DNA of 64,000 nucleotides from positions 868,001 to 932,000 of the forward strand of contig NZ_CP091036.1 of the NCBI RefSeq assembly GCF_021535135.1. Reading direction: 5' to 3'. This stretch comes from Antarcticibacterium sp. 1MA-6-2 (GTDB lineage: Bacteria; Bacteroidota; Bacteroidia; Flavobacteriales; Flavobacteriaceae). The notes under the pieces are model-generated. The model was not told the origin of the DNA and ran no database searches. It worked only from the letters and a program-made list of their open reading frames with translations. Positions 15,317-61,869 of this stretch are shown piece by piece. Every line of letters starts with the position of its first letter. The stretch's first letter is position 1. Position numbers and translations under genes: made by a program.

Positions 15317-15339
15317 ATATAATTTAAATCTATTTAATT

Positions 15340-15678: not shown

Positions 15679-15695
15679 GCTAATGTAATGAAAGG

Positions 15696-15720: not shown

Positions 15721-15852
15721 TTTTCCTTAAAGTAAAAAAACAAAAAAAGAAGTGTTACAAGAGAAATAGAGGGCGAACCAAATTTAAAACTAGAAATATA
15801 ATATGAGGAAGTTCTCTAAAGAAAATTAAGAATTTTTTGTATTAGTTAACCC

Positions 15853-15876
15853 GGGTTTCCTTTCCAGGCACAATTA
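15853..15876 (+). repeat. Second copy of the short repeat seen at 9145
   Basis: GGGTTTCCTTTCCAGGCACA matches the stretch before the Fur-family gene, 70 bp upstream of the OsmC-family gene. The two copies flank different genes, so the shared piece may be a regulatory element or a recombination scar. Confidence 0.45.
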
Positions 15877-15946
15877 TTTAAAATCAATAAATATAACTAA
15901 TAGAACAAAAGACTATCTAAAGTAGATTTTAATTTAAAACAAGAAA

Positions 15947-16402: not shown

Positions 16403-16473
16403 TTTCCTTCAGGAAGATTCAGGGTTCAAAGGTTTTAGTTTAAATTTTGAACCAGCGTTAAAACCTAACTTAT

Positions 16474-17130: not shown

Positions 17131-17233
17131 TGCAACAAATTTTATAAAAAGGAATAAATCAAATAAAAAATCAAGAACCTTGGGGGAAAGCTTATGAGGT
17201 TTGAATTGCAAATACTTTTAAAAATTCGAGGCA

Positions 17234-17251
17234 TCCCGATAGCTATCGGGA
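17234..17251. repeat. Perfect 18-bp palindrome (TCCCGATAGCTATCGGGA)
   Basis: Perfect dyad 41 bp before the SpoIIAA-like gene. Short palindromes of this CCCGATAG/CTATCGGG type are scattered through flavobacterial intergenic regions and can act as terminator or attenuator stems; only one copy is in this window. Confidence 0.45.
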
Positions 17252-17291
17252 CGGGGAATCAAACCCTCAATAAGGGACTAAAAAAGGAGTT

Positions 17292-17648
17292 ATGCTACAA
17301 ATATTAGAACAAACGGGAGGCAACATAGTTGCCACCAAAGCAACAGGAAATTTAACCAAAGCCGATTATGATATGCTTTTGCCTCTGCTAAACAACATTG
17401 TTGGGAAAAATCAGAAGATCCGTTGGTATTTTGAAATGGAGGGATTTGAAGGATGGAAACTAAAAGCCTTTTGGGAAGATCTGAAATTCGATGTCCAGCA
17501 TGTAAACGACTTTGAAAAAGTGGCCATGGTGGGGGATAAAAAATGGGAAGAATGGATGACGGATATAATGAAGCCCTTTACTTCTGCCGAAATAAAATTT
17601 TTTGAAATAAATCATGGTACCGAAGCACAAATATGGATAGAAAAGTAA
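17292..17648 (+). CDS. SpoIIAA-like (STAS-related) protein, first copy
   Basis: The 118-residue product resembles the SpoIIAA-like/DUF3478 family: GNIVATKATGNLTKADYDMLLPLL, then IRWYFEMEGFEGW and the motif KVAMVGDKKWEEW, with a terminal beta strand and IWIEK. These are stand-alone STAS-fold proteins; their partners are unknown. It overlaps the NhaA start by 16 bp, so translation is coupled. A second member lies at 19239-19604 with the same VGDKKW core, flanking nhaA on the other side. Confidence 0.75.
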   Translation: MLQILEQTGGNIVATKATGNLTKADYDMLLPLLNNIVGKNQKIRWYFEMEGFEGWKLKAFWEDLKFDVQHVNDFEKVAMVGDKKWEEWMTDIMKPFTSAEIKFFEINHGTEAQIWIEK

Positions 17649-18997
17649 CAAAGAAATCTACCCCTGTAGACTACATGAAGGAAACTGCCCGGAAGTTTCT
17701 TGACCGGGAAACCGCAGGCGGTCTTCTGCTTATTGTTGCTACTTTGGTGGCTCTGGTGCTGGCCAATACTGGGGCGGCCGACATATATCACCATTACCTG
17801 ACTGACGAAATATCAATAGGAGCACCGGAGCACCTGGAAATTTCCCTTTCTGTGGAAGAATGGATTAACGATGGCCTGATGGTGATCTTCTTTCTGGTGG
17901 CCGGGCTCGAATTGAAAAGAGAAGTAATGGTAGGAGAACTGTCTAATTTCAGAAAAGCTTCCATGCCTATATTCGCTGCCCTGGGTGGCATGCTGGTACT
18001 TGCTTTGCTTTTTTTCCTGATAAACCTCAATTCGCCCACCTCCAGCGGCTGGGGTATTCCCATGGCTACAGATATTGCCTATTCTCTTGGAATCCTTGGA
18101 CTTTTAGGAAAACGGGTGCCTGTACAGTTAAAAATATTTCTGGTAGCTTTAGCCATTGCCGATGATATTGGCGCAATTCTGGTCATTGCCTTTTTTTACA
18201 GCAGCCAAATAGCCTGGATGAACCTGCTGATTGCTGGAGGGACTCTACTTGTTTTAGCAATACTTAACAGGGCAGGAATAAAACACCTGTCTTTGTATAT
18301 TTTGCTGGGCCTTGTTTTATGGCTGGCTTTCCTTGACTCCGGAATTCATCCCACCCTGGCCGGAGTGCTGTTTTCCCTTACCATTCCCGTTAAACCGAGA
18401 TTAGAAAGTGAGGATTTTCAGCAACGGACCCAAACCCATGTGCATGAGCTGGAAAAAACAGATCTTGTAAATTCTTATCTGCTTACCAATAAGAAGCAGC
18501 AAAGTATTCTGGAAACAATACGAAGGGACACCAAGCATACCCACCCTCCCCTACTGCGGCTGGAAAATGCGCTTACTGGTTTCAATGCCTTTTTTATCAT
18601 TCCTGTCTTTGCGTTAGCCAATGCAGGTGTAAAGCTCGATCTTGGAATTTCGGAAGTCCTGGCAAATCCGCTGGGTCTCGGAATTTTAGCAGGCCTGGTG
18701 CTGGGGAAAGTCTGCGGCATTACTGCCTTCTCCTACCTGGGCGTCAAAATGGGCTTTGCCCGGCTACCGGATGGCCTCCGCTGGAAACATATTGTAGGAG
18801 TAGGGCTAATAGCCGGTATTGGATTTACCATGTCCCTTTTTATCACGAACCTGGCGTTTGCAGATGAAAACCTGGTTCAGATAGCAAAAATAAGTGTACT
18901 GCTCGCTTCACTTATAGCAGCCATAGCGGGTGTGCTTGTGCTTAGCCTGGGGAAGATTCGGAGTGTTAAGCAACAGGAGCCGGGAGAAGTTGTTTAA
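17633..18997 (+). CDS. nhaA: Na+/H+ antiporter NhaA
   Basis: The 454-residue membrane protein has the NhaA signatures: NDGLMVIFFLVAGLELKREV, then GWGIPMATDIAYSLGIL, LKIFLVALAIADDIGAI with the transport-site DD, and FFIIPVFALANAGV with GIGFTMSLFI near the C-terminus. It exchanges internal Na+ or Li+ for external protons across the inner membrane. It is longer than E. coli NhaA because of an insert in the middle (about residues 260-310). It starts inside the end of the preceding SpoIIAA-like gene. Confidence 0.95.
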   Translation: MDRKVTKKSTPVDYMKETARKFLDRETAGGLLLIVATLVALVLANTGAADIYHHYLTDEISIGAPEHLEISLSVEEWINDGLMVIFFLVAGLELKREVMVGELSNFRKASMPIFAALGGMLVLALLFFLINLNSPTSSGWGIPMATDIAYSLGILGLLGKRVPVQLKIFLVALAIADDIGAILVIAFFYSSQIAWMNLLIAGGTLLVLAILNRAGIKHLSLYILLGLVLWLAFLDSGIHPTLAGVLFSLTIPVKPRLESEDFQQRTQTHVHELEKTDLVNSYLLTNKKQQSILETIRRDTKHTHPPLLRLENALTGFNAFFIIPVFALANAGVKLDLGISEVLANPLGLGILAGLVLGKVCGITAFSYLGVKMGFARLPDGLRWKHIVGVGLIAGIGFTMSLFITNLAFADENLVQIAKISVLLASLIAAIAGVLVLSLGKIRSVKQQEPGEVV

Positions 18998-19159
18998 GGT
19001 ATTCTGTGAAAGCCGGAGGATAGTCAAACCAAAAACAGGAAGGAGTTGGATACTTAGGAACTTCAAAATGAATTAATAAATGCAACAACGGCAACATTGA
19101 GTGATATGGGAATTGCTATAGCTGGAGAGGGCCGAGGTATAAATCAAAATAAACAAAAA

Positions 19160-19184
19160 CGTCTCGACTGCGCTCGACGTGACA
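19160..19184. repeat. Short flavobacterial intergenic repeat (CTCGACTGCGCTCGA core)
   Basis: CGTCTCGACTGCGCTCGACG followed by TGACA contains the inverted TCGA...TCGA core seen repeatedly in flavobacterial intergenic DNA. It sits before the second SpoIIAA-like gene and makes an upstream in-frame start (19179) unlikely. The rest of 18998-19238 shows no gene. Confidence 0.4.
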
Positions 19185-19238
19185 ATTATAATTCAATTTT
19201 GCTTATTAGGTTTTTTACCTGACAAGCATATAAAGTAT

Positions 19239-19604
19239 ATGATAAACCTTTTAAATTCAAATAGGGACAACCTCATTGCCGTGGAAGTGAGCGGTAAGCT
19301 TTCAAAAGAGGAGGTGGAAAATTTGCATCCGCTTATCGATGAAATTATTGCTAAAAATAATAAAGTGGATTTTTATTTTGAACTGCACGATTTCTACGGA
19401 TACGATTTGGAAGGATTGTGGGTAGATCTAAAAATAGATGCTGCACATATTTCCGACTACGGAAATATGGCTATTGTTGGGGATAAAAAATGGCAGGAAA
19501 AAACTACAAAGGTTTTAAATTTCTTTTCAGGCTCTCAAATAAAATACTTTGACATAAATGAAAAGGATACGGCCAAAGCCCGGATTGGTTTAATAAAGGA
19601 GTAG
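19239..19604 (+). CDS. SpoIIAA-like (STAS-related) protein, second copy
   Basis: The product (121 residues from the second ATG) reads LIAVEVSGKLSKEEVENLHPLI, VDFYFELHDFYGYDLEGLW and MAIVGDKKWQEKTTK, collinear with the protein at 17292 and clearly the same family but divergent. The longer frame from 19179 starts inside a repeat and was rejected. It may act in membrane-associated stress signalling, but no experimental role is known to me for this family. Confidence 0.72.
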   Translation: MINLLNSNRDNLIAVEVSGKLSKEEVENLHPLIDEIIAKNNKVDFYFELHDFYGYDLEGLWVDLKIDAAHISDYGNMAIVGDKKWQEKTTKVLNFFSGSQIKYFDINEKDTAKARIGLIKE

Positions 19605-19682
19605 CTTACAGCAAAAAATGCCCTCTTAAGATGGGAAACTGTCAATAAACAGGAAAAAATTGTTTAACAAAAAGAAGTAACT

Positions 19683-19859
19683 ATGGACTGGACATTTGAA
19701 GATTTTAAGACAGACTTGGATTCCCTAAACCCGGCAGTGAGGGAGAAAGCTCTTGAAATAGCCAACGATCTTATGAAAGAGGAAAAGTATACAACAAAAG
19801 AAGCGATAACCAAAGCCATTAAACAGGCGGAAGAATGGTTTTATGATCTGGAAGGATGA
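19683..19859 (+). CDS. Small soluble protein resembling the DUF2188/YdaT-like group
   Basis: This 58-residue frame reads FEDFKTDLDSLNPAVREKAL, then EIANDLMKEEKYTTKEAITK and AIKQAEEWF. The pattern of a short aromatic start, a REKALEIANxL helix and an acidic-aromatic AIxxAIxxAxxW end recalls small stress-associated proteins of other bacteria often annotated as hypothetical. The ATG is preceded by AAGAAGTAACT. It follows the SpoIIAA-like gene by 78 bp. The family assignment is from memory and tentative; coding potential is good. Confidence 0.55.
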   Translation: MDWTFEDFKTDLDSLNPAVREKALEIANDLMKEEKYTTKEAITKAIKQAEEWFYDLEG

Positions 19860-20004
19860 GACCTAAGGCATAAACCAATAACTTTCCTGTAAAACTTATC
19901 AGAAAGTATTGGTCAAAGTGGAATGTAATCGCTCTTTCTTAAAAAGTAGACCTAATATTTGGGTTGTTGTGAACAATATTAATTTAAAACTTTAATTTCA
20001 AGAT

Positions 20005-21410
20005 ATGGAAAAATTTGATGTAACTATTATAGGATCTGGACCGGGTGGGTATGTAAGCGCTATACGTTGCGCCCAATTAGGGCTAAAAACAGCCATTGTT
20101 GAAAGGTACAGCACGCTTGGCGGCACCTGTCTTAACGTGGGCTGTATCCCTTCAAAAGCCTGGCTGGAAGCCTCGGAGCATTATTACAAACTGAAACATC
20201 AATTTGAAAACTTTGGGATTGATGTAAAAGAGGCCAATGTCGATATTCTAAAAATGAACCAAAGGGTTCAGGATGTGGTAAAGGAAATCATCAATGGCGT
20301 TGGTTACCTGATGAAAAAGAACAAGGTAACCGTTTTTGAAGGCCACGGCACTATTAAGGACAAAAATACGATTGAGATTAAGGGCGAGGACAAAACGGAA
20401 ACCATAGAAACCAATAAAATCATCATTGCCACAGGGTCCAAACCCGCTTCACTGCCCAATATTGAAATCGATAAAAAAAGGATCATCTCTTCCACCGAAG
20501 CCCTTGCCCTACAGGAAATACCAAAGCATTTAATGGTCGTTGGCGGCGGTGTTGTCGGGGTAGAGATAGGTTCTATTTTCGCCCGCCTGGGTTCAAAGGT
20601 ATCGATTGTAGAATATTTTGATAGCCTCATTGCCACTATGGATGGCGCACTGGGACATCAATTGCACCGTTCCCTAAGAAAACAGGGAATTGAATTTTAT
20701 TTGGAACATAAGGTGACAAATGCAACAGCAACTGAAGGCAAAGTGGCGTTGAAAGCGGAAAACCTATCCGATAAAAAAGAAATGAGTTTAGAAGGCGATT
20801 ATTGCCTTATGGCCATTGGCAGAAAACCATACACCGCTAATTTAGGCCTTGAAAATATTGGAGTGGAAACCAACGAAAAAGGACAGATAACAGTAGATGA
20901 GAACCTCGAAACCAATGTCAAAGGCGTTTATGCTATAGGGGACGTAATCCGTGGGGCAATGCTTGCCCATAAGGCCAGTGAAGAGGGCGTTTTTGTAGCC
21001 GAACGGATTGTTGGCCAAAAACCACATATCAATTATTCGCTCATTCCAAATATCGTGTACACTCAACCAGAGGTTGCTTAAGCGTAGGATCAACTGAAGA
21101 AGAACTAAAAAAAGCAGGAAGAAGTATCAAAACAGGCTCTTTTCCCTTTAAAGCTAATGCAAGGGCAAAAATAAGTATGGACACAGACGGTTTTATAAAA
21201 GTAATTGCAGATAAGGAAACCGATGAGATATTGGGGGTACATATGATAGGCCCACGCATCGCGGACAGTTATACAGAAGCGGTAGTGGCAATGGAATTCA
21301 GGGCATCTGCCGAAGATATTGCAAGGATGTCCCACGGGCACCCCACCTTCTCCGAGACCTTTAAAGAAGCCTGTCTGGCAGCTACAGATGACAGGGCTTT
21401 GCATATTTAA
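20005..21410 (+). pseudogene. lpdA: Dihydrolipoyl dehydrogenase-like flavoprotein (one frame break)
   Basis: FAD-binding GSGPGGYVSAIRCAQLG, the redox pair in LGGTCLNVGCIPSK, the NAD fold VVGGGVVGVEIGSIFARLG, the FAD motif YAIGDVIRGAMLAHKA and the C-terminal catalytic HxH-E-type stretch SHGHPTFSETFKEA identify lipoamide dehydrogenase (about 468 residues after repair). The frame breaks at 21077-21083: GCTTAAGC stands where PEVAGVG would need GCC GGC. No E2/lipoyl gene is adjacent, so it may serve a stress or metal-related redox role rather than a 2-oxoacid complex (inference). Confidence 0.85.
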
Positions 21411-21599
21411 TCCAAAATTCCCGATTGATCATCAGCCTTATAACTGTTGGCGTCGTGCTACAGGAGGTTGAAAACCCCAAAGAAACAAGAGATGCCCACA
21501 GAGGAGCTAAAGTAACAGTCAAAGATGTGTAGTACTTTCAATAAAGGATCTTCCTTTAAAGTGGCCTCTCTTGTTCGGGTCGTATAACAAATATTAACA
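21411..21599. other. Intergenic region before the CDF gene
   Basis: An open frame from about 21424 (TTG start) reads LITVGVVLQEVENPKETRDA and ends at TAG 21529. It has no good start and I recognise no family, so it may be the tail of a lost gene. No clear promoter or palindrome is visible. Confidence 0.25.
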
Positions 21600-22391
21600 A
21601 TGAATAAAAGCACATTTACCATTCAAAAAATGGATTGCCCTTCGGAAGAGCAGATGATCCGAATGAAGTTGCAGTCTGTTGCACAGGTTCAACATTTGGC
21701 TTTTGATATTTCTAATCGAAAATTGGAAGTTTATCATACCGGAGACAGCACGGAAGTACATCAGGAAATCCGTCAGCTGGATTTAAATGATAAATTGGAA
21801 GAGACCACAGAAGCTGCGTTGCCTTTACCTTCAGATGATTCCCACCAACGAAAAATCCTTTGGTGGGTACTTGGAATAAACTTTGGTTTCTTTCTCATAG
21901 AAATGACCACCGGATGGATATCAGCCTCCATGGGTCTTATTGCTGATTCCCTGGATATGCTTGCCGATGCTATTGTTTATGCCCTTAGCTTGTTTGCCGT
22001 TGGGACATCCATTTCAAGAAAAAAGAAGGTTGCGGGAATTAGCGGTTACCTTCAGATGGGGCTTGCTTTACTGGGATTTGTAGAAGTTATAAGACGCTTT
22101 TTCTTAAGTAGTGAAACGCCATTATTTCAATGGATGATCATCGTTTCGGTTTTCGCCCTGGCGGGAAATTTGATTTCGCTTTGGCTAATCAATAAGGCTA
22201 AAAGCGATGAGGCGCATATGCAGGCCAGTGCCATTTTCACTTCCAACGATATTATAGTGAATGGTGGTGTTATAGTGGCAGGGGTACTGGTCTATTTTCT
22301 AAACAGCAAATGGCCGGATTTAGTAATTGGTGGGATTGTGTTCACTTTCGTAATGCGCGGTGCCCTTAGAATATTAAAATTATCCAAGTGA
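21600..22391 (+). CDS. CDF-family cation efflux transporter with N-terminal HMA-like domain
   Basis: Residues 1-75 form a ferredoxin-like domain (STFTIQKMDCPSEEQMIRMK) with a single Cys plus Asp rather than the CxxC site. Residues 85-263 hold five or six membrane segments with the CDF metal-site motifs SMGLIADSLDMLADAIVYAL and SNDIIVNGGVIVAG. The Asp pairs there bind Zn, Cd, Co or similar ions and export them in exchange for protons. The usual cytosolic C-terminal CDF domain is missing; the N-terminal domain may replace it. Such HMA-CDF proteins are common in Bacteroidota metal islands. Confidence 0.82.
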   Translation: MNKSTFTIQKMDCPSEEQMIRMKLQSVAQVQHLAFDISNRKLEVYHTGDSTEVHQEIRQLDLNDKLEETTEAALPLPSDDSHQRKILWWVLGINFGFFLIEMTTGWISASMGLIADSLDMLADAIVYALSLFAVGTSISRKKKVAGISGYLQMGLALLGFVEVIRRFFLSSETPLFQWMIIVSVFALAGNLISLWLINKAKSDEAHMQASAIFTSNDIIVNGGVIVAGVLVYFLNSKWPDLVIGGIVFTFVMRGALRILKLSK

Positions 22392-23219: not shown

Positions 23220-23572
23220 TATTTACTACAGTGTAAGTATCTTATCTTTAGTACGTAAAATCCCAAATCTTACAACTTTGATTAGAGATTTTCTGGAATA
23301 GGCAAATTTATCATTTACATTTAGCATAGAAAAAGCCCGGACAACGACAATTTTATCTACGAAACGTTTTTTTGTGTAAGGAGATTATTTTTTCTTATTA
23401 AAGGAAAGAAAGAATCTTAAACTTATATTCATGTAAAGTTCAAGGTTTTAAAAATATCCGGAAGAATACAACTGCTTTTGTAAAAATTATCATTGGCAAC
23501 ATACATTTACCTAAATTATCCTATAAAAGAAAAATTCAAGTAAATGATCCTAACCACTTATCATGTTTAAAT
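23220..23572. other. AT-rich spacer between cargo remnant and the guide-RNA locus
   Basis: No open frame of interest, no inverted repeat longer than a few bases and no clear promoter was seen. It lies downstream of the putative guide RNA on the reverse strand. Confidence 0.4.
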
Positions 23573-23664
23573 AAAAAAGCCCACGCCGTTGTATATGCTG
23601 TTTGCATTTAGTGAGTGTGATAATCACCTCACCTTACGGGTGTACAAGCACCCTCGAGACTAAT
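23573..23664 (-). ncRNA. Putative guide RNA of the dCas12f-like protein
   Basis: Reading the reverse strand right after the dCas12f-like stop codon: a 16-nt hairpin GGGTG-CTTGTA-CACCC (23653-23638), then a longer hairpin GTGAG-GTGA-TTA-TCAC-A-CTCAC (23632-23611), then TAAATGCAAAC, about 22 nt of unique sequence beginning CAGCATATACAACGG (23600-23579) and a T6 run (23578-23573). Hairpins followed by a 3' unstructured segment and a T-run fit a Cas12f/TnpB-type scaffold with a 3' guide. No second repeat unit is seen, so it is a single-guide locus, not a CRISPR array. The scaffold/guide boundary is inferred. Confidence 0.6.
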
Positions 23665-24759
23665 TCAATCTATAATAATTTCGATCCCTGCTTTCTCTGC
23701 CTTGTACTTTATCTTGGTCATTAACTTGTAATAACTCCAGTTTCTTAGTACAAATTCCTCTTCTTTGGCTATCCCTATCTTATCCTGTTGATTCAATAAA
23801 ATCAGCGTTCCCGCCTGGTGTTTAATGCAAAAGTCGATCAACTTCCGGCTGTAGAGATGTAACCTGCTGTCCACAAAATTACCTTCCTTATTTTCAAACT
23901 TATCAAGCGCTTTGGTTTTTCGTTTTCGGCCTTTGCCCGATCTGGCATAGGTTACCCCTGCCAGCGCCCGTTTCCTGGCTGCCTGTATTGCAAGCCTTCT
24001 GTACAAAAACTCTTCCCGGGTGCCAATGGTGAGCCTGGTTTTACCAACTTTGACTATAACGGGGTATTCAAGTGACAGCGAAGCCTCTGCAATCACTTCC
24101 GGTTTCAGGACGTGCTTGTCTTTTTCAATTTCAAAAACTGCAAGCAAAAAGGTTTTGCCGTCTTTCAACTGAATATGTGAGGAACAAAGCTTGGTTTCTC
24201 CAGTTACTACACGCTCCAACAGCCTGTGTTTATCAGTATCTTTACCTAAGTACGTCTTAAGAGGAATTGAAAATAATCGAAAACAAAAGGCTTTCTTCTC
24301 TTCAATATAGCATAATCCCTTAACACCATCCATATCAAACGGAATAGGGATGTCTCTCCTGAAATTCATGAGCGAGCGTTCACCACTCCCGTATTCCTTC
24401 CTGTTTTTGAGGAAGGTTCTAATTAATGTTTGATTCAGGTTACCCAGGATATTGGTAGGGATCTCTCCTTTGAAATGATTTGATACAACTCGGTAGGTCG
24501 TATTCATTCGGGAGCGTTGCAGCATACCGCTTTCATCCTTCTTTTCATCGGCCAGTTTATACTTTATCCCTTCAGAAAAATAGAAGAAGTCCTTGATCAT
24601 TTCCTGTACATAGAGATGGGAGACGATCATATTAGCTGCCCTAAAGCACCTGTTCTGCCACTGGTAAAGCTTCCCAATAGCCTCCTTTCTTTCCTCCGGG
24701 GTAGGCAGATCAACCAATAGCTGGATCTTTCGGGTTAGTTTTAGCGTAGACTTTTCCAT
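23665..24759 (-). CDS. Nuclease-dead TnpB/Cas12f-like RNA-guided DNA-binding protein (dCas12f)
   Basis: 364 residues. The first ~200 form an all-helical/wedge-like part. The C-terminal third aligns with TnpB/Cas12f: RuvC-I region PVIVKVGKTRLTIG (231-246), the basic helix RRLAIQAARKRAL, RSGKGRKRKTKAL, LHLYSRKLIDFCI, RuvC-II AGTLILLNQQDKIG (316-329), and the end WSYYKLMTKIKYKAEKAGIE. In active enzymes RuvC-I has GIDLG and RuvC-II a Glu; here Lys237 and Asn323 sit at those places, and the protein stops before the zinc finger and RuvC-III Asp. No cysteine-rich remnant follows in other frames, so truncation is natural. It should bind but not cut DNA. It starts 1 nt after the sigma gene, as in known dCas12f-sigmaE pairs. 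Confidence 0.82.
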   Translation of the reverse strand: MEKSTLKLTRKIQLLVDLPTPEERKEAIGKLYQWQNRCFRAANMIVSHLYVQEMIKDFFYFSEGIKYKLADEKKDESGMLQRSRMNTTYRVVSNHFKGEIPTNILGNLNQTLIRTFLKNRKEYGSGERSLMNFRRDIPIPFDMDGVKGLCYIEEKKAFCFRLFSIPLKTYLGKDTDKHRLLERVVTGETKLCSSHIQLKDGKTFLLAVFEIEKDKHVLKPEVIAEASLSLEYPVIVKVGKTRLTIGTREEFLYRRLAIQAARKRALAGVTYARSGKGRKRKTKALDKFENKEGNFVDSRLHLYSRKLIDFCIKHQAGTLILLNQQDKIGIAKEEEFVLRNWSYYKLMTKIKYKAEKAGIEIIID

Positions 24760-24760
24760 C

Positions 24761-25546
24761 TTAAGCTATTTGCTGTTGCTGCTCGTGTTTCTCCTGCATG
24801 ATCTTATAAGCGATCATAAATTCTTTATGAACTTCCTTTTGGGAAAGCTTAAGCTCAGCAGCTATACTTGCAAAAGAAAATTTCTTTTCATTGCGGAGGC
24901 GGAATACTTCTTCCTGCTCCGGGGTCATGTTAGCCTGCACCTTAATTACCATGGCTGGTTTTTGTTTAGTTTGAGCTACGGAATCCGGATTAATGATATT
25001 TTTAAGATCTGAAATAGCCAGTTGCACCTCGTTAAAAGTTTCCGGAATGCTCGTGCCCATAACTTTGGAAATTTCTTTGTAACGGAAGCCATATTTAAGA
25101 CAGAGATCAATAAGGTGCCTTCTCTCGGCCGTTAGTAAGGGTAAGACATTTATAATTTTTTCAAAGGCTTTTTGTTCCCGTTCCTGGTCTCTAAAATTTT
25201 CTAAATCACTTATTGGATCATAGCCCCCTAAGTACTCCTGGAAGTTTTCATAACTGTCCAGGGAATTGACTTTGCTGAAAAATTTGGTTCTGGGCAATGT
25301 GTAATAGGAATAACATTCCCTTTGCATGACCATTCGCAGGAAAAAGTAAATATGTTTAGGGGTTTCTATACGATCCCGGTGAACCCATAATTTTAGAAAG
25401 CTATCCTGAACCAGGGATGATACAACAAAATCATCATCAAGAATTCCCCTGCCTACCCAGAATATACTCCGGTGGTATCTGGCATGTATATGCTCCAAAG
25501 CCGTCGGATCGCCATTTTTTAATAAATTGAAATTATGCTGTGACAT
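24761..25546 (-). CDS. ECF-type sigma factor (sigmaE/RpoE-like) partnered with dCas12f
   Basis: 261 residues, longer than usual ECF sigmas (160-200). Region 2 spans about 11-80 (ALEHIHARYHRSIFW; SSLVQDSFLKLWVHRD, the core-binding helix). Region 4 spans about 128-183 (LPLLTAERRHLIDLCLKYGF; RYKEISKVMGTSIPETFNEV), with weakened HTH consensus. An extra C-terminal HTH-like domain follows (205-250: MTPEQEEVFRLR, FSFASIAAELKLSQKEVHKE). No anti-sigma gene is adjacent. The stop codon is 1 nt from the dCas12f start, so the two are co-translated. An RNA-guided partner would replace promoter recognition; the extra domain may be the contact site (inference). Confidence 0.82.
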   Translation of the reverse strand: MSQHNFNLLKNGDPTALEHIHARYHRSIFWVGRGILDDDFVVSSLVQDSFLKLWVHRDRIETPKHIYFFLRMVMQRECYSYYTLPRTKFFSKVNSLDSYENFQEYLGGYDPISDLENFRDQEREQKAFEKIINVLPLLTAERRHLIDLCLKYGFRYKEISKVMGTSIPETFNEVQLAISDLKNIINPDSVAQTKQKPAMVIKVQANMTPEQEEVFRLRNEKKFSFASIAAELKLSQKEVHKEFMIAYKIMQEKHEQQQQIA

Positions 25547-25634: not shown

Positions 25635-25814
25635 TCATATATCTGAATTTAATGCCCTTTCTACCTGATCCAGTTTTTTGTAATACTCTGCAATTAATTC
25701 ATCTGCGTATATTGGTGTTCTATCACCATTCAGACAATATCGTATGTAACGAGGAGTCACCTTATATTTACATGCCAAGGCTTTTACCACCTCAGTGTTA
25801 TAAGTTTTCTGCAT
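25635..25814 (-). CDS. Small HTH-like protein upstream of the sigma-dCas12f operon
   Basis: 59 residues: MQKTYNTEVVKALACKYKVT, PRYIRYCLNGDRTPIYADEL and IAEYYKKLDQVERAL. The layout helix-turn-helix (VVKALACKYKVTPRYIRYCLNG) resembles small repressor-like DNA-binding proteins. It is on the same strand as the sigma gene, 88 bp upstream, and faces the CI-like gene at 25938. It may regulate the operon or be part of the module. Too short for most gene finders; the frame is clean and the composition protein-like. Confidence 0.6.
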   Translation of the reverse strand: MQKTYNTEVVKALACKYKVTPRYIRYCLNGDRTPIYADELIAEYYKKLDQVERALNSDI

Positions 25815-25842: not shown

Positions 25843-25931
25843 TTTGTTCCTTTAATCGGAACAAAATCAAATATATAAACATTTTGTTTACAAAACAACT
25901 GTTTTTTTACTTTTTATAAACATTTCGTTTA
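25843..25931. promoter_or_regulatory. Divergent control region with three palindromes
   Basis: Between the small HTH gene (reverse) and the CI-like gene (forward): TTTGTTCC-N7-GGAACAAA (25843-25865, perfect arms), TAAACA-TTT-TGTTTA (25876-25890, perfect) and TAAACA-TTT-CGTTTA (25917-25931, one mismatch). The two TAAACA dyads are 41 bp apart, about four helical turns, and the second ends 6 bp before the CI-like ATG, typical of autorepression with cooperative binding. The TTTGTTCC palindrome may serve the other regulator. Confidence 0.65.
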
Positions 25932-25937
25932 CATAAT

Positions 25938-26327
25938 ATGAATAAATCTAAAATGCTTGATGAGATAAAGATTCATTATGGATTTAAAAGGGATGCAGAA
26001 TTAGCGGATTTTTTAGAAATTACCAGACAGACTTTATCGAATTGGAAATCAAGAAATTCTTTTGATGCTGAATTACTATATTCAAAATGCCCAGAACTAA
26101 GTCCCGCATGGTTACTAACGGGTAAAGGTCCAATGCTCCAAAAAGATTCAACAGACTCAATAATTAATGAAACTGATCCAGAAGTTCTGCGCGAAAAATT
26201 ACTTCATCTTCAAAGGCAACTAGATGCGTTAGAAAAAGCCAATAACGCTTTAGAAGATGCCAATGACTCATTAAAGGAAACAAAAATGTTACTTAGGAAA
26301 CGAATTACAGAGCTTGAAGGCAAATAA
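25938..26327 (+). CDS. CI-like phage-repressor-type HTH protein with C-terminal coiled coil
   Basis: Residues 1-70 match the Phage_CI_repr HTH domain: DEIKIHYGFKRDAELADFLE, ITRQTLSNWKSRNSFDAELL and LSPAWLLTGKGPM. From about residue 80 it forms a long coiled coil (LREKLLHLQRQLDALEKANN; ALEDANDSLKE) rather than a LexA-like peptidase, so it is not cleaved by RecA. Two matching dyads lie just upstream, implying autorepression. It is transcribed divergently from the sigma-dCas12f operon and probably sets the expression of both directions. Confidence 0.75.
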   Translation: MNKSKMLDEIKIHYGFKRDAELADFLEITRQTLSNWKSRNSFDAELLYSKCPELSPAWLLTGKGPMLQKDSTDSIINETDPEVLREKLLHLQRQLDALEKANNALEDANDSLKETKMLLRKRITELEGK

Positions 26328-29944: not shown

Positions 29945-30228
29945 TGAAACAGTTTGAAGTCTATAGAAACATTAGGAAAGGGGCTGTCATTTTTGGGCTT
30001 CCCATCTCCTCCTTTGCTTTAATGATGATTTGCGTAATAGCTTCATTATTGGTCATCATTTTCTCTTTCAGCTTCTGGATCATCATTGGTGCTTTGATCT
30101 TCAATTGTATCCTTTATTTAGTACTAATCAGAATAACCAGAACATCACAGCTCTTTCAGGTGTCGGTAAAATTTCCAGAAATCATCAGCAACAGAAGAAA
30201 TTCAAATTTAAATTATGAACAAGATTAA
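29944..30228 (+). CDS. traF: TraF-like (DUF4133/VirB3-like) conjugal-transfer membrane protein
   Basis: 94 residues: N-terminal FEVYRNIRKGAVIFGLP, two adjacent membrane helices (FALMMICVIASLLVIIFSFS; WIIIGALIFNCILYLVLI) and a charged tail. VirB3-like proteins sit in the inner membrane beside the VirB4 ATPase. It overlaps the previous gene by 1 bp and the VirB4-like gene by 14 bp, a tightly coupled operon. Confidence 0.75.
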   Translation: MKQFEVYRNIRKGAVIFGLPISSFALMMICVIASLLVIIFSFSFWIIIGALIFNCILYLVLIRITRTSQLFQVSVKFPEIISNRRNSNLNYEQD

Positions 30229-33202: not shown

Positions 33203-34045
33203 ATGAGTGCTAACATCATTTTAGGAATTGGACTGGAATATGTCGATACGGTTTTCCAGACCATCCAGAACAGTGAATTTTCACAGTACACCATAGTGGG
33301 AATGAAAACGCTCGCTGTGCTCTTTTTCCTTGTGAACATCCTTAAGAAATACAATGAAGGTATTGCCGATAAGGACGGTTATACATGGGGATTGAGTCCC
33401 GGGGAACTTGCAAAGAATTTTGCAGTAGTGCTACTGGTAATTTTCTCCACACAAATTTTGGGATTTTTTGATGGAATTCTAGTGGCCATTGAAGATCGTT
33501 ATCGGGATACGGCTCCTGCTTTGCTTCCCTTGCAGATGCAGGACATCCCCATTGAAGAAGATGTAAGCATCGTGGATGCGGCAAGAAAAGCTATGGCATT
33601 ACTTTACGAAGCATTAGTAACTCCACTTTATGGATTTAAATTCTTTGCATTTATAATTAGCTTGTTTCTCTGGTTATTGGACCTGTTCATTTACCCCTTA
33701 TTTTTGGCTGAACGTTACTTTCTACTAGGATTAATGCAGGCTTTTTTTCCACTGGTCATAAGTCTGGCCGTGTTTGAGAAGTTTCGCTCCCTGGCATATA
33801 ACTTCTTCAAGTTATATGCCGCAGTCTATATGCTTGTACCTGCATTTTTCCTGGTAAACGTTTTTATCAATGCAATATACACAGAAATTAATACCAACTT
33901 CTGGACAAACTTGTTCGGTACTGACGTGGGTAGTGGATTTTTTGCCCCGGTAGTGGAACTGGGATCTATCGGGTTTATCGTTTTTCTCAAGTTTAAACTC
34001 TACAGGCGGGCAACTTCTTTCACTCTAAGACTTTTTACATCATGA
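33203..34045 (+). CDS. traJ: Conjugal-transfer protein TraJ (VirB6/TrbL-like)
   Basis: 280 residues with about five or six membrane helices (MKTLAVLFFLVNILKKY; FAVVLLVIFSTQILGFF; FFAFIISLFLWLLDLFIYPL; LMQAFFPLVISLAVFEKF; AVYMLVPAFFLVNVFI) and a central acidic loop (QMQDIPIEEDVS). VirB6-type proteins form the inner-membrane channel of the mating pore. It overlaps traK by 4 bp. Confidence 0.85.
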   Translation: MSANIILGIGLEYVDTVFQTIQNSEFSQYTIVGMKTLAVLFFLVNILKKYNEGIADKDGYTWGLSPGELAKNFAVVLLVIFSTQILGFFDGILVAIEDRYRDTAPALLPLQMQDIPIEEDVSIVDAARKAMALLYEALVTPLYGFKFFAFIISLFLWLLDLFIYPLFLAERYFLLGLMQAFFPLVISLAVFEKFRSLAYNFFKLYAAVYMLVPAFFLVNVFINAIYTEINTNFWTNLFGTDVGSGFFAPVVELGSIGFIVFLKFKLYRRATSFTLRLFTS

Positions 34046-34658
34046 AAACATCTTATCAAAATATATATTCCGTATTAAAGCTAAATAGGCTTGTAGTTAT
34101 TGCTGTAGTTATTTGCGCATTCTCTTCGAGCATCTTTTCGGGATGGATAGCATTTTCAATTCATAAAAGAGCACTGAACAGTGCCTTTGCAGTTAATACA
34201 AACGGAGAGGTAATCCCGTTAAAACTGGTTTCCCAAAAAGAAAACTTCAAAGTGGAAGCATTGGCACATTTGGAGTTATTTCACAATTATTTCTATAACA
34301 TCGATGCCAGCAATTATGAAAAAAACCTGGAAAAAGCGCTTTGGCTGGGAAACAGCTCTGTCGACAACCTATACCTAAGCAGAAGAAAGCTGATGGTGTT
34401 TACAACAGGTTGATTCAATATTCCCTGGTGCAAAAGGTACTTAGTATGAATTCTGAGGTAGCCGAACAAGAAGGAACGTACAGCTTTAAAACCACTACCA
34501 TTTTTAAAATCAACCGCGGATCTGTAATCGATACTTATGAGCTGGTTTCCACAGGAAACTTGATCACTGTAGATCGAAATTTTCCCAACAACCCTCACGG
34601 ATTGCTTATCACTAATTACTTTGAAAACACTTTAAAGAAACTAAATAATGAAAATTGA
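34042..34658 (+). pseudogene. traK: Conjugal-transfer protein TraK (VirB8-like), one frame break
   Basis: A short cytosolic N-terminus, one membrane helix (LVVIAVVICAFSSSIFSGWI) and a periplasmic domain (EALAHLELFHNYFYNIDA; KALWLG), then after a one-base loss near 34377 QKKADGVYNRLIQYSLVQKV and TYELVSTGNLITVDRNFPNN. This is the NTF2-like periplasmic domain of TraK/VirB8, a scaffold of the mating pore. Repaired length is about 205 residues. It overlaps traM by 11 bp. Confidence 0.85.
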
Positions 34659-35577
34659 AAAGAATAAAATAGTGTTTGGGGCTGTAATCGCAGTAATACT
34701 CCTATTTCTAATTTCCTATTCGCTAATGATTATGGGCGATGACGAAAGTGAGATCCAAAATTTGAAACAAACTTTGGTCCCTGAACTGGAACAGGAATCG
34801 AAGGAATACGATTCCAAACTTGATGCTATAAATGATTTGAGGGAAGTACGGGAAACCAATGCTCCCAGTATTTACGATGAGAAGCTGATAGATTCCCTGG
34901 GTTTCTATGACACAGAATTAACCGAAAAGGAAAAGGAAAGGATTGTTGACAGTATCTATGAATCCGGACGTATAAAATATTCAGAAGGAATAGACCAGGA
35001 ATTCACGCCAGAACAAAAGATTACCACTCCCACTCCTCAATTAGAAATTGAGGAGATACAGCAGGAACATAAAATTGAAGCTAAGGAAATGGGACTGGAG
35101 CACCAACTGTTCTTTGCCTCCTCCCCTACTTCAGACAATAGGCTTGTTGCAGCGGATACCCATTCGGTTGTATATGCTGTGGTCGATGGGAACCAGGTCG
35201 TAAAGACCAATTCTCGCCTCCGAATGCGCCTGACATCGACAGCTAAGATCAATGATCAATGGATTCCTAAAAATACTATTATCTATGGCTTTATCAACTT
35301 TAAGCCTAACAGGACATTGGTCGAAGTTAAAAATATAGACCATCATCCGGTAAACCTGAAGGCTTTCGACCTCCAGGATGGTAGCGAAGGTATTTATGTA
35401 GTAAACAGTTTCCGGGCTGAGGCAACCAGTGAGGTTCTGGATGATATCATACAGGATATAAACATTCCAAGTGTGCCACAAATTAGTGGAATAACCAAGG
35501 TTCTTAGGCGCAATAACCGGAACGTCAAAGTAACCGTACTTAATGATTACAAACTAATTTTAAAATCTGAACTATGA
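34648..35577 (+). CDS. traM: Conjugal-transfer protein TraM (VirB10-like)
   Basis: 309 residues: one N-terminal membrane helix (GAVIAVILLFLISYSLMI), a charged linker rich in Glu (34800-35050) and a C-terminal beta domain (SVVYAVVDGNQVVKTNSRLR; PKNTIIYGFINFKPNRTLVE; DDIIQDINIPSVPQISGITK). VirB10 homologues span the periplasm and link inner and outer membrane parts. The segment 35167-35180 shares 14 bases with the putative guide at 23588-23601. Confidence 0.88.
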   Translation: MKIEKNKIVFGAVIAVILLFLISYSLMIMGDDESEIQNLKQTLVPELEQESKEYDSKLDAINDLREVRETNAPSIYDEKLIDSLGFYDTELTEKEKERIVDSIYESGRIKYSEGIDQEFTPEQKITTPTPQLEIEEIQQEHKIEAKEMGLEHQLFFASSPTSDNRLVAADTHSVVYAVVDGNQVVKTNSRLRMRLTSTAKINDQWIPKNTIIYGFINFKPNRTLVEVKNIDHHPVNLKAFDLQDGSEGIYVVNSFRAEATSEVLDDIIQDINIPSVPQISGITKVLRRNNRNVKVTVLNDYKLILKSEL

Positions 35578-36413
35578 AAACTAATATCTTATTCCTCCTG
35601 TTTTTCACCTCTTTTGCATTTCGTCCTTGTTTGGCTCAAGAAAGAAAAATCCTCGACACCATTTTTGCAAATGACCAAAAAAATGTGGCCCTATTCTTTC
35701 CGAAACCTATACGGCAGGGAATAACAGGTTCTGACAATTTTGTTTTTACTTATAACCGAGAAGCGGAACAATATTTCGGACTCTTACAGGCCACACCTGG
35801 AAAAGAAAGCAATCTACTGGTAATCAGTTCAAATGGTTCGGTTTTTTCGTATATTGTAAAGTATAAGGAACAGCTTGATCAGCTGAACTATTTTGTTCCA
35901 AAATCTGACACCATAGGCAACGAAAAGCCTGTGATCAGTGATGAACCGGAGATAAATAAGACAGGAATAAAAGAAAGGGACAAGACCTACTATTACGGCA
36001 AATTTTGTTCCTTTCTGGTTGAACGCAAACAAAAAATAGGGCGGTTAAAAAAACGGGATCAGGATATTGTCTTAAGTGTTGAAAATATTGTGTTTGATAA
36101 AGAAGAACTCTATTTCGTTATCCAGATAGAAAACAAATCATCTCTGGATTATGACTTGAATTTCCTGAATTTTGGAATTGAGACCAGGCAAAAAGGAAAA
36201 AGGAAATCCTCCCAGACCATTTATCAAAAACCTGCTTTCCAATATAGTATGCCCTCTGAAATTAAAGAAGGTGAAGCAGAAAAATTGGTTTATGTGCTCC
36301 CAAAATTTTCTTTGGGAGATGACCGCAGAGTCATACTGGAACTGAATGAAAAAAACGGTGGGAGAAATATTAAATTAAAAGTACCGCATAAATATATCAA
36401 TAACCCTAACTAG
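35574..36413 (+). CDS. traN: Conjugal-transfer protein TraN (VirB9-like, DUF4138)
   Basis: 279 residues with a signal peptide (ILFLLFFTSFAFRPCLAQ) and a beta-rich domain: ILDTIFANDQKNVALFFPKP, GSDNFVFTYNREAEQYFGLL, SVENIVFDKEELYFVIQIEN and FSLGDDRRVILELNEKNGG. This matches the DUF4138/TraN outer-membrane component equivalent to VirB9. It overlaps traM by 4 bp and closes the pore operon. Confidence 0.85.
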   Translation: MKTNILFLLFFTSFAFRPCLAQERKILDTIFANDQKNVALFFPKPIRQGITGSDNFVFTYNREAEQYFGLLQATPGKESNLLVISSNGSVFSYIVKYKEQLDQLNYFVPKSDTIGNEKPVISDEPEINKTGIKERDKTYYYGKFCSFLVERKQKIGRLKKRDQDIVLSVENIVFDKEELYFVIQIENKSSLDYDLNFLNFGIETRQKGKRKSSQTIYQKPAFQYSMPSEIKEGEAEKLVYVLPKFSLGDDRRVILELNEKNGGRNIKLKVPHKYINNPN

Positions 36414-53670: not shown

Positions 53671-54725
53671 TTAGATACCTATTGAACTTGATTTAATAGC
53701 CACTTCCACACCACGGCGCAGGCGGTTGAATATTTTCATTGCCAGTTGTGCCTGTGTAACCGGAATACTTGGTAGCATTGGAACACCACTTTCCTTCATA
53801 ATTTTAAAAGCAATCGCCCTTTCATTGGTGGGCAATTTCATCAGCGATGCAAAATATATTTTAGGATTTTTGATGAAATCCTTTCGGGCCTTATAGGTCT
53901 CGGCAAAGTTTCTTTGATAGACAAAAGTCCTGTCAAAGGTCTTTTCTGCCCGGTCAAAAAATTGATCACGGTCAAAGCCCCGTTTTACATTCTTACCATG
54001 CATCTGGACTTCCGAGGCCTTATGCTTGCTCCCAGGAGAAAGACTGAAAGTATTGGATGCATCCTTTCTGCTTACGATGATATGGATATGGCTTTGATTT
54101 CCTGCCTTTGGCATCCCCTGGACAATTCGCTTCCCGTCCTGTTGGTGCGGAGCTTCCTTTTCCAATCGGTCAATTTTATTCTGCAATAGTTTGATATTGC
54201 CTTCAGCTCGCCCCTCTTTAATGTTTCTGATTTCTGTTTTGAGCTGCAATATTTTGGTAGCAAAGGGTTGGTTTTCCCTAATCTGCCAGTCCGTTCCCTT
54301 AAAAGTTCGTTGGTGTTCTATTTTGGCGTAATATTTAATATCATCGATGCTAATCGGTCTTCCGTTGATTTCCCGATTGAAGGAAGCCACGTAGTCCTTC
54401 ATCAGTTCTCGGGTGTATCTTTTTAGATCCTCGCTGTTGTTCTGTAATAAGTTCAGTTCGTATTTGGAAGGGCTGACCGTAATCGAATAGAATTTCGGTT
54501 CTGTCTTTTTGAGTTTGGCACCATTTCCATCAATTTCCTTTACAACTTCATCCGCTGATATTTCAACATCATATTGATTGAAAAAATGTTCCATACCTGC
54601 CTTGCTTAAGCAGGCAGGGCTCCCTGTTCCAGATCCTGGTTTTCCTTCTCCAGGTAGCCCACAAAATCCGCTGAACTTTGCGAGTAATTGTTCCCTAATT
54701 TTTGAGGTGTGATGGTAATGTACAT
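53671..54725 (-). pseudogene. mobB: Relaxase (MobB, DUF5712-like), frame break in a palindromic insert
   Basis: Reading from ATG 54725 gives MYITITPQKLGNNYSQSSAD and FVGYLEKENQDLEQG, the standard start of this relaxase family. Then an imperfect palindrome (54597-54619, CCTGCCTT-GCTTAAGC-AGGCAGG) shifts the frame, after which MEHFFNQYDVEISADEVVKE continues normally. The histidine motif is HIHIIVSRKDASN (about residue 240). The enzyme nicks oriT and pilots the strand. The palindrome with GCTTAAGC matches the CCGG-linked lesions seen elsewhere. An ORF starting at 54795 in the wrong frame was rejected. Confidence 0.8.
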
Positions 54726-54736
54726 AGCTCAAAAAT

Positions 54737-55117
54737 TTACAGTTCATTCTTATTATTTTGCTTTTCCTGAAAACGTACCTCCTTCTTCTCTTCAATAATT
54801 TTCTTTTCCAAAATCAACGGTTTCTTTTTAGGTTCTTCGGTTTGAAAAAGGGATTCCAACATTGCGACGGTGGGTTTGGTCTGGCTCTTTTCCATATCCC
54901 TCATAATGGCAATCACCGCATTTATACGTTTCTTTAAAGAAGCTTCGATTGTCCTTCCCGTAGGCCCCAATTTTTCCTTTGGGGAAATTTCGTTGTAGAA
55001 GAAAAAATCGAGCATTGTTGCCATTGCCTCGGTGTGGGATTTGAAGTGTGTCCTTGAAAATTCCTGAAAACGTTTTGCCGTTTCCTTTTTGAACCTGATG
55101 CCGATAAATGAGTCCAT
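54737..55117 (-). CDS. bfmA: BfmA/BtgA-family mobilization protein
   Basis: 126 residues: FIGIRFKKETAKRFQEFSRT, FKSHTEAMATMLDFFFYNEI (ribbon-helix-helix-like) and a C-terminal charged tail (EEPKKKPLILEKKIIEEKKE). These accessory proteins bind oriT and help the relaxase. It starts 11 bp upstream of the relaxase start, and a candidate oriT lies just upstream. Confidence 0.8.
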   Translation of the reverse strand: MDSFIGIRFKKETAKRFQEFSRTHFKSHTEAMATMLDFFFYNEISPKEKLGPTGRTIEASLKKRINAVIAIMRDMEKSQTKPTVAMLESLFQTEEPKKKPLILEKKIIEEKKEVRFQEKQNNKNEL

Positions 55118-60361: not shown

Positions 60362-61693
60362 CTAAAAATTAATGACACTATCCAAGGCATCATCAGCATC
60401 TCGATGAATGAAGTTAGCCTGATAAATTAAAGTAGTTTTCAAATTACTATGTCGATAGAGCTTTTGCAGCATTAAGGGGTGTATTTTATCACCTGCAATA
60501 TTCCCAAAGCTGTGTCTTGCAATGTGATTGGATAAATTTTTTTCTATACCACATTCCTCTGCAATTCGTTTTAGATATTTATTGAGAAGCTTGGTAGCAT
60601 TTTTTGTTTTAATATAAATTTTTTCAGCATCTTTAGGATGGACATTTTTCAGAAATGGAAATACATGTCCATTATAATGTGTCTTGTCCTTTCTATAATA
60701 GCTTAATATTTTCTCAGCTTTATGGGGGATTTTCAGGCTCAATGGTTTTTCGTTCTTATTCATTACATAATAAAGACGATTATCTTTAAAATCAGACCAT
60801 TTCAGTTTAACCACATCGGAAATACGTATGCCTGCAAAATAGAAGGCGAACAGCCAGACATTATGTGTATGCCAAATTGAAGCACCTTCTTTCAATTTTA
60901 GAGCTTCAATTTTTTCAACCTCTTCTATAGTCAGACCAATTTTGTTACCAGAACCAATTCGAATTTTCTCTTTTTCCCCTGCAAAAGGATAATATTTTTG
61001 ATCAATAATACCTTCTTTTATTGCTAAGTTAAAAAGTGTTCTAATAAAAATAAGCTGATTTGTAACAGTTCTTGTTTTTTGATTTAGATAAGAAAGACAA
61101 AAAGTTTTATATTTATTTAGAAATGCCTCATCAATATCCTGAAATCGTAAAGCTGTACTTTTTTGGAAATAGTTCACTCCATCCATCCACAGATATTCGG
61201 ATTTTTTAGCCCTACTTATACGCTCTGTACGCCTTTCTTTGATCTCCTTAATAACTGTAGCTTTGTTCTTAGTTCTTTTTAGGTTTAAAAATTCTTGTAA
61301 ATTATAGAGGATTGACAATTCGGATTTGGCTACAGAGAATGTCCCCCTTTCATATTTTTCCTTTATGCGTTCAGCTGCTAATGCAAAAAAAGATTTTAAT
61401 CCATCAGGACCTTTTAATTTTTCTTTGGCTTGTTTGGGAGTAATACGAACTTTGGAATCAAAATAAATATCGTTGACCTCGGTCAACTTTTTCATCAAAA
61501 AATTGTTCAACTTTTTAGAATTGGGATGAGTCCGCTTAACTTTTCCAGCAGTATTATCCCAATCCTTTTCGAACACATATTGTCCAAGCCAATGATAATT
61601 TGTTTTATAATTTTCACTAATCCTCAATGCAAGGGGAATTGTACCATCCTTTCTTATCATATTCTTTCGTAAAACAATCTTTACATTAGCCAT
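60362..61693 (-). CDS. int: Tyrosine-type site-specific integrase
   Basis: 443 residues from MANVKIVLRKN (the upstream ATG adds two). N-terminal Arm DNA-binding domain (DGTIPLALRISENYKTNYHW), core-binding domain (FQDIDEAFLNKYKTFCLSYL) and catalytic domain with Arg in AGIRISDVVKLKWSDF, HxxR in SNHIARHSFGNIAGD, His in QKLYRHSNLKTT and Tyr in TLIYQANF. It recombines attP with the tRNA-Met 3' end; the att core lies 177 bp away at 61870-61910, and directional control by an excisionase is expected. Confidence 0.92.
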   Translation of the reverse strand: MANVKIVLRKNMIRKDGTIPLALRISENYKTNYHWLGQYVFEKDWDNTAGKVKRTHPNSKKLNNFLMKKLTEVNDIYFDSKVRITPKQAKEKLKGPDGLKSFFALAAERIKEKYERGTFSVAKSELSILYNLQEFLNLKRTKNKATVIKEIKERRTERISRAKKSEYLWMDGVNYFQKSTALRFQDIDEAFLNKYKTFCLSYLNQKTRTVTNQLIFIRTLFNLAIKEGIIDQKYYPFAGEKEKIRIGSGNKIGLTIEEVEKIEALKLKEGASIWHTHNVWLFAFYFAGIRISDVVKLKWSDFKDNRLYYVMNKNEKPLSLKIPHKAEKILSYYRKDKTHYNGHVFPFLKNVHPKDAEKIYIKTKNATKLLNKYLKRIAEECGIEKNLSNHIARHSFGNIAGDKIHPLMLQKLYRHSNLKTTLIYQANFIHRDADDALDSVINF

Positions 61694-61869
61694 AACCATG
61701 TAATTTACAATTAAGTAAAGATAATGAAATGTTTAATAGTTAGTACAGAATAAGTACAGAATAATTTGATTTTAACGCGTTACAATTAAAATCAAGTATT
61801 ATATAAATACCTGTAAATCATTGGTTTTATGGGGTTTTAGTTGAAATTGTATAGGTAAAACATCAAGTT

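What the first reader, a model, noticed from the sequence alone, without database searches (positions are those of the whole stretch)
23573..25546. dCas12f-sigmaE module: candidate RNA-guided transcription system on an ICE
Seen directly: an ECF-like sigma gene with an extra C-terminal HTH-like domain, followed after 1 nt by a 364-residue TnpB/Cas12f-like protein whose RuvC-I Asp is Lys237 and RuvC-II Glu is Asn323, and which ends before the zinc finger and RuvC-III. A structured segment abuts its stop codon. Established: nuclease-dead Cas12f homologues linked to sigmaE in Bacteroidota have been reported to recruit RNA polymerase by guide RNA. Inference: this operon lets the ICE switch on a target gene in the host or on itself with the guide deciding the promoter. 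I know of no report of it as ICE cargo; if new, the element carries a portable regulator.
Basis: partly seen in the sequence, partly recalled or inferred. Interest (0 to 1): 0.95.

Follow-up and report, generated by a model that had tools for sequence, protein, structure and literature searches.

The report
Mobile RNA-guided gene switch, dCas12f-sigma
This mobile element carries a close relative of a known cutting-dead CRISPR-like protein together with its own sigma factor and guide RNA; in related bacteria the guide matches a structured leader in front of nutrient-uptake genes, which the system would likely switch on, but no convincing target was found in this bacterium's own genome.

Summary
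The effector (23665-24759, -) is 73.9% identical (269 of 364 aligned positions) to PDB 9n9c, 'Nuclease-deactivated Cas12f', itself identical to the Allomuricauda (Flagellimonas) taeanensis protein in L024; the sigma matches 9n9q chain C, 'RpoE'. So this is a new member of the dCas12f-sigmaE kind, not a new kind. The structured segment is a guide RNA: scaffold 23588-23655 (R1 95.9 bits), guide 23569-23587 (GGCGTGGGCTTTTTTATTT). ICE carriage is not unique: L032 has the same tra genes, and the founder L024 lies near a relaxase. New here: 62 of 82 loci share this guide type, and in 16 relatives' genomes all 22 non-gRNA matches lie in one ~180-nt leader family without an Rfam match. It shows two mutually exclusive covarying folds (one terminator-like), a promoter-like box, and mostly precedes SusC genes (24 of 33); 54 loci carry it before sigmaE-dCas12f itself. 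The guide is the strand shared by both folds. In the window's genome neither leader nor convincing target was found, and a CI/Cro-like cassette precedes sigma. Function and start site are inferred.

The parts
24761..25546 (-). ECF sigma factor (sigmaE, 261 aa) with an additional C-terminal region-4-like HTH (residues ~206-241)
   Evidence: Pfam r4_2 34.3 bits with two stretches, r2 20.3 bits just under its cut-off; TIGR02937 61 bits; 9n9q_C 'RpoE' E 1.2e-92 over residues 4-259
23665..24759 (-). dCas12f, 364 aa, Ser227 in the RuvC-I Asp column, Leu322 in the RuvC-II Glu column, no zinc finger/RuvC-III
   Evidence: 9n9c_A E 5.5e-180, 73.9% identity
23588..23655 (-). guide-RNA scaffold GAGGGTG...GCATATACAAC, three helices
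   Evidence: R1 match 23588-23673, 95.9 bits; 40 aligned copies; only clear copy in the genome (next E 0.29)
23569..23587 (-). guide segment GGCGTGGGCTTTTTTATTT (its 3' end is inferred; matches in relatives run over about 14-16 nt)
   Evidence: position after the scaffold; same guide type in 62 of 82 loci with a gRNA, the window counted
25635..25814 (-). small 59-aa HTH/Cro-like gene in front of sigma (HTH and Cro-like by eye, no family match sought)
   Evidence: 84-90% identical copies in L009, L010, L042, L044, L046
25868..25932 (-). TATATTTG promoter box (25868-25875) preceded by two near-identical repeats GTAAAC(A/G)AAATGTTTA (25876-25891 and 25917-25932)
   Evidence: sequence; promoter and operator role inferred
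25938..26327 (+). divergent CI-type repressor (129 aa)
   Evidence: Phage_CI_repr 44.6 bits; homologues divergent to the small HTH in L009, L010, L042, L044, L046
30215..32627 (+). TraG conjugation ATPase in two overlapping frames (30215-31738, 31719-32627)
   Evidence: PF19044 above cut-off in both pieces, TIGR03783 217.7 bits below cut-off, frames
34042..36413 (+). TraK, TraM, TraN of a Bacteroidota conjugative element
   Evidence: TraM PF12508 139.7 bits; TraK and TraN below the NCBIfam cut-offs
53671..54795 (-). MobB family relaxase
   Evidence: NF041495 353 bits, DUF5712
60362..61699 (-). tyrosine integrase
   Evidence: PF00589

Best explanation
This is a dCas12f-sigmaE operon with its own guide RNA that is predicted to bring RNA polymerase to DNA matching the guide and so switch on the gene downstream. 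Shown: the two proteins are homologues, over full length, of a solved dCas12f and of the RpoE chain solved with it; the gRNA scaffold directly follows the effector gene; in relatives the guide matches, after a G, a conserved leader mostly found in front of SusC-type uptake genes and often in front of sigmaE-dCas12f itself. Inferred: dCas12f opens an R-loop at the switching strand of that leader, sigmaE starts transcription a short distance downstream, and the new transcript lacks the 5' arm of the leader's terminator-like helix, so it escapes attenuation. In this genome the target class was not found and a CI/Cro-like cassette stands where most relatives have the leader, so here the module most likely travels with the ICE as a guide waiting for a host that has the leaders.
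For: Effector and sigma homology to 9n9c/9n9q. gRNA scaffold with covarying helices right after the stop, one clear copy in the genome. Same guide type in 62 of 82 loci with a gRNA; 20 differ; 15 loci hold 2-4 gRNA copies. In 16 relatives' genomes the guide pattern (<=2 mismatches) gave 41 matches against 3 for the reversed pattern: 19 are gRNA copies and the other 22 all lie in the leader family (7 in front of sigmaE-dCas12f; of the 15 others two hold only the 3' part beside an IS110). A G precedes GCGTGGGC in 67 of 68 leaders scored, of 69 held. First gene after 33 strong leaders outside dCas12f loci: 24 SusC/RagA, 2 ECF sigma, 7 neither. A second guide family (TTGTGGGATACACG; L018 second copy, L032, L035) has three exact G-preceded 14-nt matches, two in L018's and one in L035's genome, all in such leader regions 259-289 nt further down and about 260 nt before a SusC-like start (SusC by family for L254, by a 62-aa end of contig only for L252 and L256).
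Against: No transcription, binding or RNA data. No convincing target in the window's own genome. The leaders also occur in 26 of 141 family genomes without a detected effector, so they have a life of their own and the match could come from the leader's own constraint; by eye, guide and leader do not covary within a locus (L016, L017, L023, L036). The TTGTGGG pattern at <=1 mismatch gave 30 matches (4 of them gRNAs) against 11 in controls; nothing comparable was seen in L032's genome, and the F. taeanensis guide itself fits its own site over 10 nt and then has two mismatches. Where the best match of the window's guide starts with GGCG, the base before it is G in only 35 of 62 leaders. The window's guide can also fold back on the 5' end of the gRNA. 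The initiation distance is recalled, not measured here.
Confidence: 0.72

Rival explanations
1. The gRNA 3' end works on RNA, not DNA: it copies the switching strand of the leader and would pair in trans with the nascent leader (its CCACGCC arm or its GCTCACG arm), changing termination.
For: The guide equals the strand shared by two mutually exclusive, covarying leader folds; the CCACGCC arm is followed by a T-rich stretch in 52 of 69 leaders.
Against: Does not explain the sigma partner, the G before the site, or the second guide family hitting another site in the same leader regions.
Confidence: 0.12
2. The conserved 3' stretch is not a guide but the 3' boundary or terminator of the gRNA, similar to the leader by common descent.
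For: It ends in a T-run in many loci, and in four multi-gRNA loci (L010, L012, L034, L072) it or a near form is the last copy; in the window it can close a stem with the 5' end.
Against: The 5' partner is not conserved; 20 of 82 loci have other sequences there; the unrelated TTGTGGG form also finds sites in SusC leader regions.
Confidence: 0.12
3. In this particular ICE the module is a decaying passenger: the guide has drifted and acts on nothing.
For: No convincing target in a single-contig, 97% complete genome; the guide's T-run departs from most leaders after base 10-12; TraG is frameshifted.
Against: Both proteins are full length with no stops, the scaffold scores 95.9 bits and the control cassette is conserved in five relatives.
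Confidence: 0.3

Closest known systems
dCas12f-sigmaE RNA-guided transcription system, Flagellimonas/Allomuricauda taeanensis (PDB 9n9c, 9n9m, 9n9o, 9n9q; its function is recalled from a preprint, not held here)
   Same: operon order sigma-dCas12f-gRNA, lost RuvC residues, protein length, sigma with extra HTH, gRNA scaffold; L024 itself lies near a MobB relaxase and a distant integrase homologue
   Different: 74% identity; another guide type; a CI/Cro-like cassette instead of the leader in front of sigma; target class not found in the host
Cas12f / TnpB nucleases (9nzo, 7wju, 8hr5)
   Same: sequence similarity over residues ~84-362; RNA after the gene (recalled for TnpB)
   Different: catalytic residues lost, zinc finger and RuvC-III missing, sigma partner
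TldR (nuclease-dead TnpB repressors; recalled)
   Same: dead TnpB-like protein used for gene control by guide
   Different: repression by occupancy, no sigma partner
Bacterial transcription attenuators / leader riboregulators (recalled as a class)
   Same: the target leader has two exclusive folds, one terminator-like with a T-rich tail
   Different: no Rfam family reached its gathering score over the leader

Membership tests
dCas12f-sigmaE system | Cas12f-like effector with lost RuvC catalytic residues | tested here: met
   9n9c_A E 5.5e-180; Ser227 and Leu322 at the Asp and Glu columns of 9nzo
dCas12f-sigmaE system | adjacent ECF sigma of the 9n9q RpoE type | tested here: met
   E 1.2e-92 over residues 4-259
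dCas12f-sigmaE system | gRNA encoded next to the effector, conserved scaffold plus guide | tested here: met
dCas12f-sigmaE system | guide-dependent RNAP recruitment and transcription | not testable with these tools
   needs RIP-seq, ChIP-seq, RNA-seq or a reporter
dCas12f-sigmaE system active in this host (stronger claim than membership) | guide-matched target after a 5'-G (G rule recalled) in the same genome | tested here: not met
   seen in relatives but no convincing target in the window's genome
Cas12f/TnpB nuclease | RuvC-I Asp, RuvC-II Glu, RuvC-III Asp, zinc finger | tested here: not met
   (RuvC-III and zinc finger: the alignments end at residue ~362)
ICE (Bacteroidota conjugative element) | integrase, relaxase and T4SS genes around the module | tested here: met
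   TraG in two frames
ICE (Bacteroidota conjugative element) | defined ends (att sites) and transfer | not tested
   ends were not mapped
Known Rfam RNA family (target leader) | match at or above a gathering score | tested here: not met
   leader of L013: three matches far below gathering, best E 0.39; 30 further loci: one whalefall-1 and one group II intron, both outside the leader

The most novel reading that the evidence does not exclude
dCas12f-sigmaE is an attenuator bypass: the guide is the switching strand of a new bistable leader in front of SusC operons, so RNA-guided initiation starts past the strand that the terminator needs, and ICEs carry this near-universal guide from host to host as a portable switch for nutrient uptake.
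Probability: 0.3. Interest if true: 0.85.

Novelty: new member of a known kind. Interest (0 to 1): 0.6.

Why it matters
It ties a recently solved RNA-guided transcription machine to a likely natural target class, a leader with two exclusive folds in front of SusC uptake operons in relatives. It also shows that these modules ride on conjugative elements, perhaps the founder's included. That makes the natural purpose directly testable and suggests how one mobile guide could serve many hosts.

Tried and rejected
Rejected: guide targets in the own genome. The 19-mer with <=3 mismatches gave five places, one the gRNA itself, against four in the control. The best-looking site, C1:1525597, is an ordinary terminator-like hairpin, and a site upstream of a TonB-receptor-like start (L092) has seed mismatches (both read by eye). 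The weak leader hit in the genome (E 0.19) lies inside a 629-aa ORF and does not look like the leader; the best one in the window has 16.5 bits.

Rejected: guide-leader covariation as proof of self-targeting; by eye they do not covary within loci. Phage, plasmid or viral carriage: no dCas12f match in the phage and plasmid collections at E 1e-20, and one pattern match but no relative in viral contigs. Literature: searches listed no paper recognisable as one on dCas12f-sigmaE; no paper was opened, only listings and starts of abstracts were seen, and bioRxiv is not held. What is in print about native targets is therefore unknown to me; the description of the founder system, its 5'-G rule and its start site about 46 bp away are recalled. 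A weaker leader group (17 of 57 fetched of 61 listed places, L226-L242) lies 8-200 nt before varied ORFs in 15 of 17 cases; those ORFs were aligned but not classified. One search used an out-of-frame small-HTH query, replaced; one search used too long a spacing, replaced. A structure prediction was not run, because a 74% identical solved structure exists.

Full report
What is there. On the minus strand lie an ECF sigma gene (24761-25546), one base, and a 364-aa effector (23665-24759). The effector matches PDB 9n9c 'Nuclease-deactivated Cas12f' over its whole length (E 5.5e-180; 269 of 364 aligned positions identical). The 9n9c sequence as printed (364 residues) is 100% identical to the protein encoded in L024, whose record is titled Allomuricauda taeanensis JCM 17757. 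The sigma factor matches 9n9q chain C, 'RpoE' (E 1.2e-92), over its extra C-terminal HTH as well. The RuvC-I Asp column of 9nzo holds Ser227 and its RuvC-II Glu column Leu322; the protein ends where the zinc finger and RuvC-III would follow. The genome has one copy.

The guide RNA. Downstream of the effector stop of relatives lies a conserved scaffold, GAGGGTGCTTGTACACCCGTAAGGTGAGGT...ACACTCACTAAATGC..GCATATACAAC. Of 87 loci (L001 is the window's own; loci were not thinned for redundancy), 82 carry it by my pattern; L005, L007, L008, L046 and L073 do not, and a contig end or divergence may be the cause. Its three helices hold in 99.5% of cells, with four pairs changed on both sides. Model R1 finds it in the window with 95.9 bits and nowhere else in the genome with confidence (next E 0.29). 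In 62 of the 82 loci the first twelve following bases hold GCGTGG(G/A)(C/T)T, as in the window; in 20 they do not; 15 loci have two to four gRNA copies, mostly with different guides.

What the guide matches in relatives. In 16 relatives' genomes GCGTGGGCTCTCTTATTT with up to two mismatches gave 41 matches against 3 for the reversed pattern. Nineteen are gRNAs. The other 22 all lie in one leader family: 7 in front of sigmaE-dCas12f itself and 15 elsewhere, of which two (L150, L151) keep only the 3' part beside an IS110 element (IS110 by Pfam for L150). In one search, 54 of the 82 loci have this leader upstream of sigma. Model R2 of the leader hits 33 of 149 genomes of the family sample (61 places listed; strict filters); the effector is in 8 of the same 149. 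Of these 8, 7 have the leader (5 away from the effector locus) and only the window's genome has none; 26 of the other 141 have it too (Fisher p 1e-4, and 0.01 for leaders away from the locus). One of the seven, G503, has contigs of the same lengths as the Sinomicrobium records already. I fetched 57 of the 61 places. Forty are strong (125 bits or more): six stand before dCas12f, one (L195) had no downstream gene because the contig ends, and of the first genes of the other 33, 24 are SusC/RagA, 2 ECF sigma and 7 neither.

The leader. No Rfam family reached its gathering score over it. It has two mutually exclusive folds. A long hairpin has 28 pairs, 97.5% of cells paired and 13 pairs changed on both sides, no one of 500 shuffles reaching these. 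A terminator-like helix has 16 pairs, 98.9% and 5 such pairs, with a T-rich tail in 52 of 69. The structures were read from this alignment, which favours them over slid controls. The strand GGCGTGGGCTC.CTTAT takes part in both folds, and it is the guide. A TAnnTTTGC box (Bacteroidota -7 element, recalled) sits at the 5' end of 53 of 69 leaders against 7 of 1380 random windows. If sigmaE starts some 46 bp past the G (recalled), the transcript would lack that strand and could not form the terminator-like helix; this is inference.

A second guide family. L018 (second gRNA), L032 and L035 carry TTGTGGGATACACG, L024 TTGTGGGATATACG. The 14-nt form has three exact G-preceded matches, two in L018's genome (G398) and one in L035's (G397), each 259-289 nt below the leader's own guide site and about 260 nt before a SusC-like start. 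F. taeanensis has a site at the same place (261 and 262 nt), but its own guide fits it over 10 nt and then has two mismatches. SusC is by family for the G397 and F. taeanensis cases; in the G397 case the chosen start is one of several Met codons. In G398 only 62 residues of each gene are on the contig. The other matches of that search (30 in all, 4 of them gRNAs, against 11 in controls) do not show this pattern where I looked, and L032's genome has no such exact site.

The window's own case. Neither the guide nor the leader has a convincing match in the genome. Among 69 leaders held, the best fit to the window's guide is 16 of 19 bases, or a 12-base perfect start in Salegentibacter L012. In place of the leader, sigma is preceded by a 59-aa HTH-like gene, two operator-like repeats and a divergent CI-type repressor; the two genes are shared with L009, L010, L042, L044 and L046, like a phage immunity switch (inference).

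ICE. The window holds an integrase, a MobB relaxase and tra genes. Of 86 relatives' loci, 6 have a relaxase homologue (L018, L024, L028, L030, L032, L035) and 19 an integrase homologue at E 1e-6 (24-29% identity in the five of those six that have one) in the fetched flanks; L032 has the tra operon. Flanks are at most 10 kb, so these are lower bounds. Carriage on conjugative elements is therefore a recurring trait and may include the founder, which has a relaxase about 2.8 kb from its dCas12f gene.

Verdict. A new member of the dCas12f-sigmaE kind. The added value is the likely native target class and the leader, which make its purpose testable.

Noticed in passing
30215-32627: TraG is split into two frames overlapping by 20 bases; in L032 the two homologous stretches start in the same frame (coordinates). 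Sequencing error, programmed shift or damage cannot be told apart.
   Followed up: partly
L150 about 1331 and L151 (- strand) about 1332: An IS110-family element sits directly at the guide-like hairpin of the leader, ahead of GCGTGGGC, suggesting this hairpin is an IS110 insertion site (Pfam run for L150 only).
   Followed up: partly
2898-22391: Metal-efflux-like cargo: RND pump fused to an outer-membrane efflux domain (1489 aa), two P-type ATPases (one short), a cation efflux protein and a Na+/H+ antiporter.
   Followed up: no
39425-49713: Type I restriction-modification genes with HsdR in two overlapping reading frames.
   Followed up: no
L226-L242: Weaker leader relatives, 15 of 17 lying 8-200 nt before varied ORFs: a possible wider RNA family around GGCGTGGGC.
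   Followed up: partly
L050, L051, L059: Loci with three to four gRNAs in a row and near-repeated guides (CCTTCCCC.., TTAATTCAATTAGCC), as if gRNA units were duplicated and retargeted.
   Followed up: no
L189 1942-1994: A whalefall-1 RNA match (RF01762) between a leader and its SusC gene.
   Followed up: no
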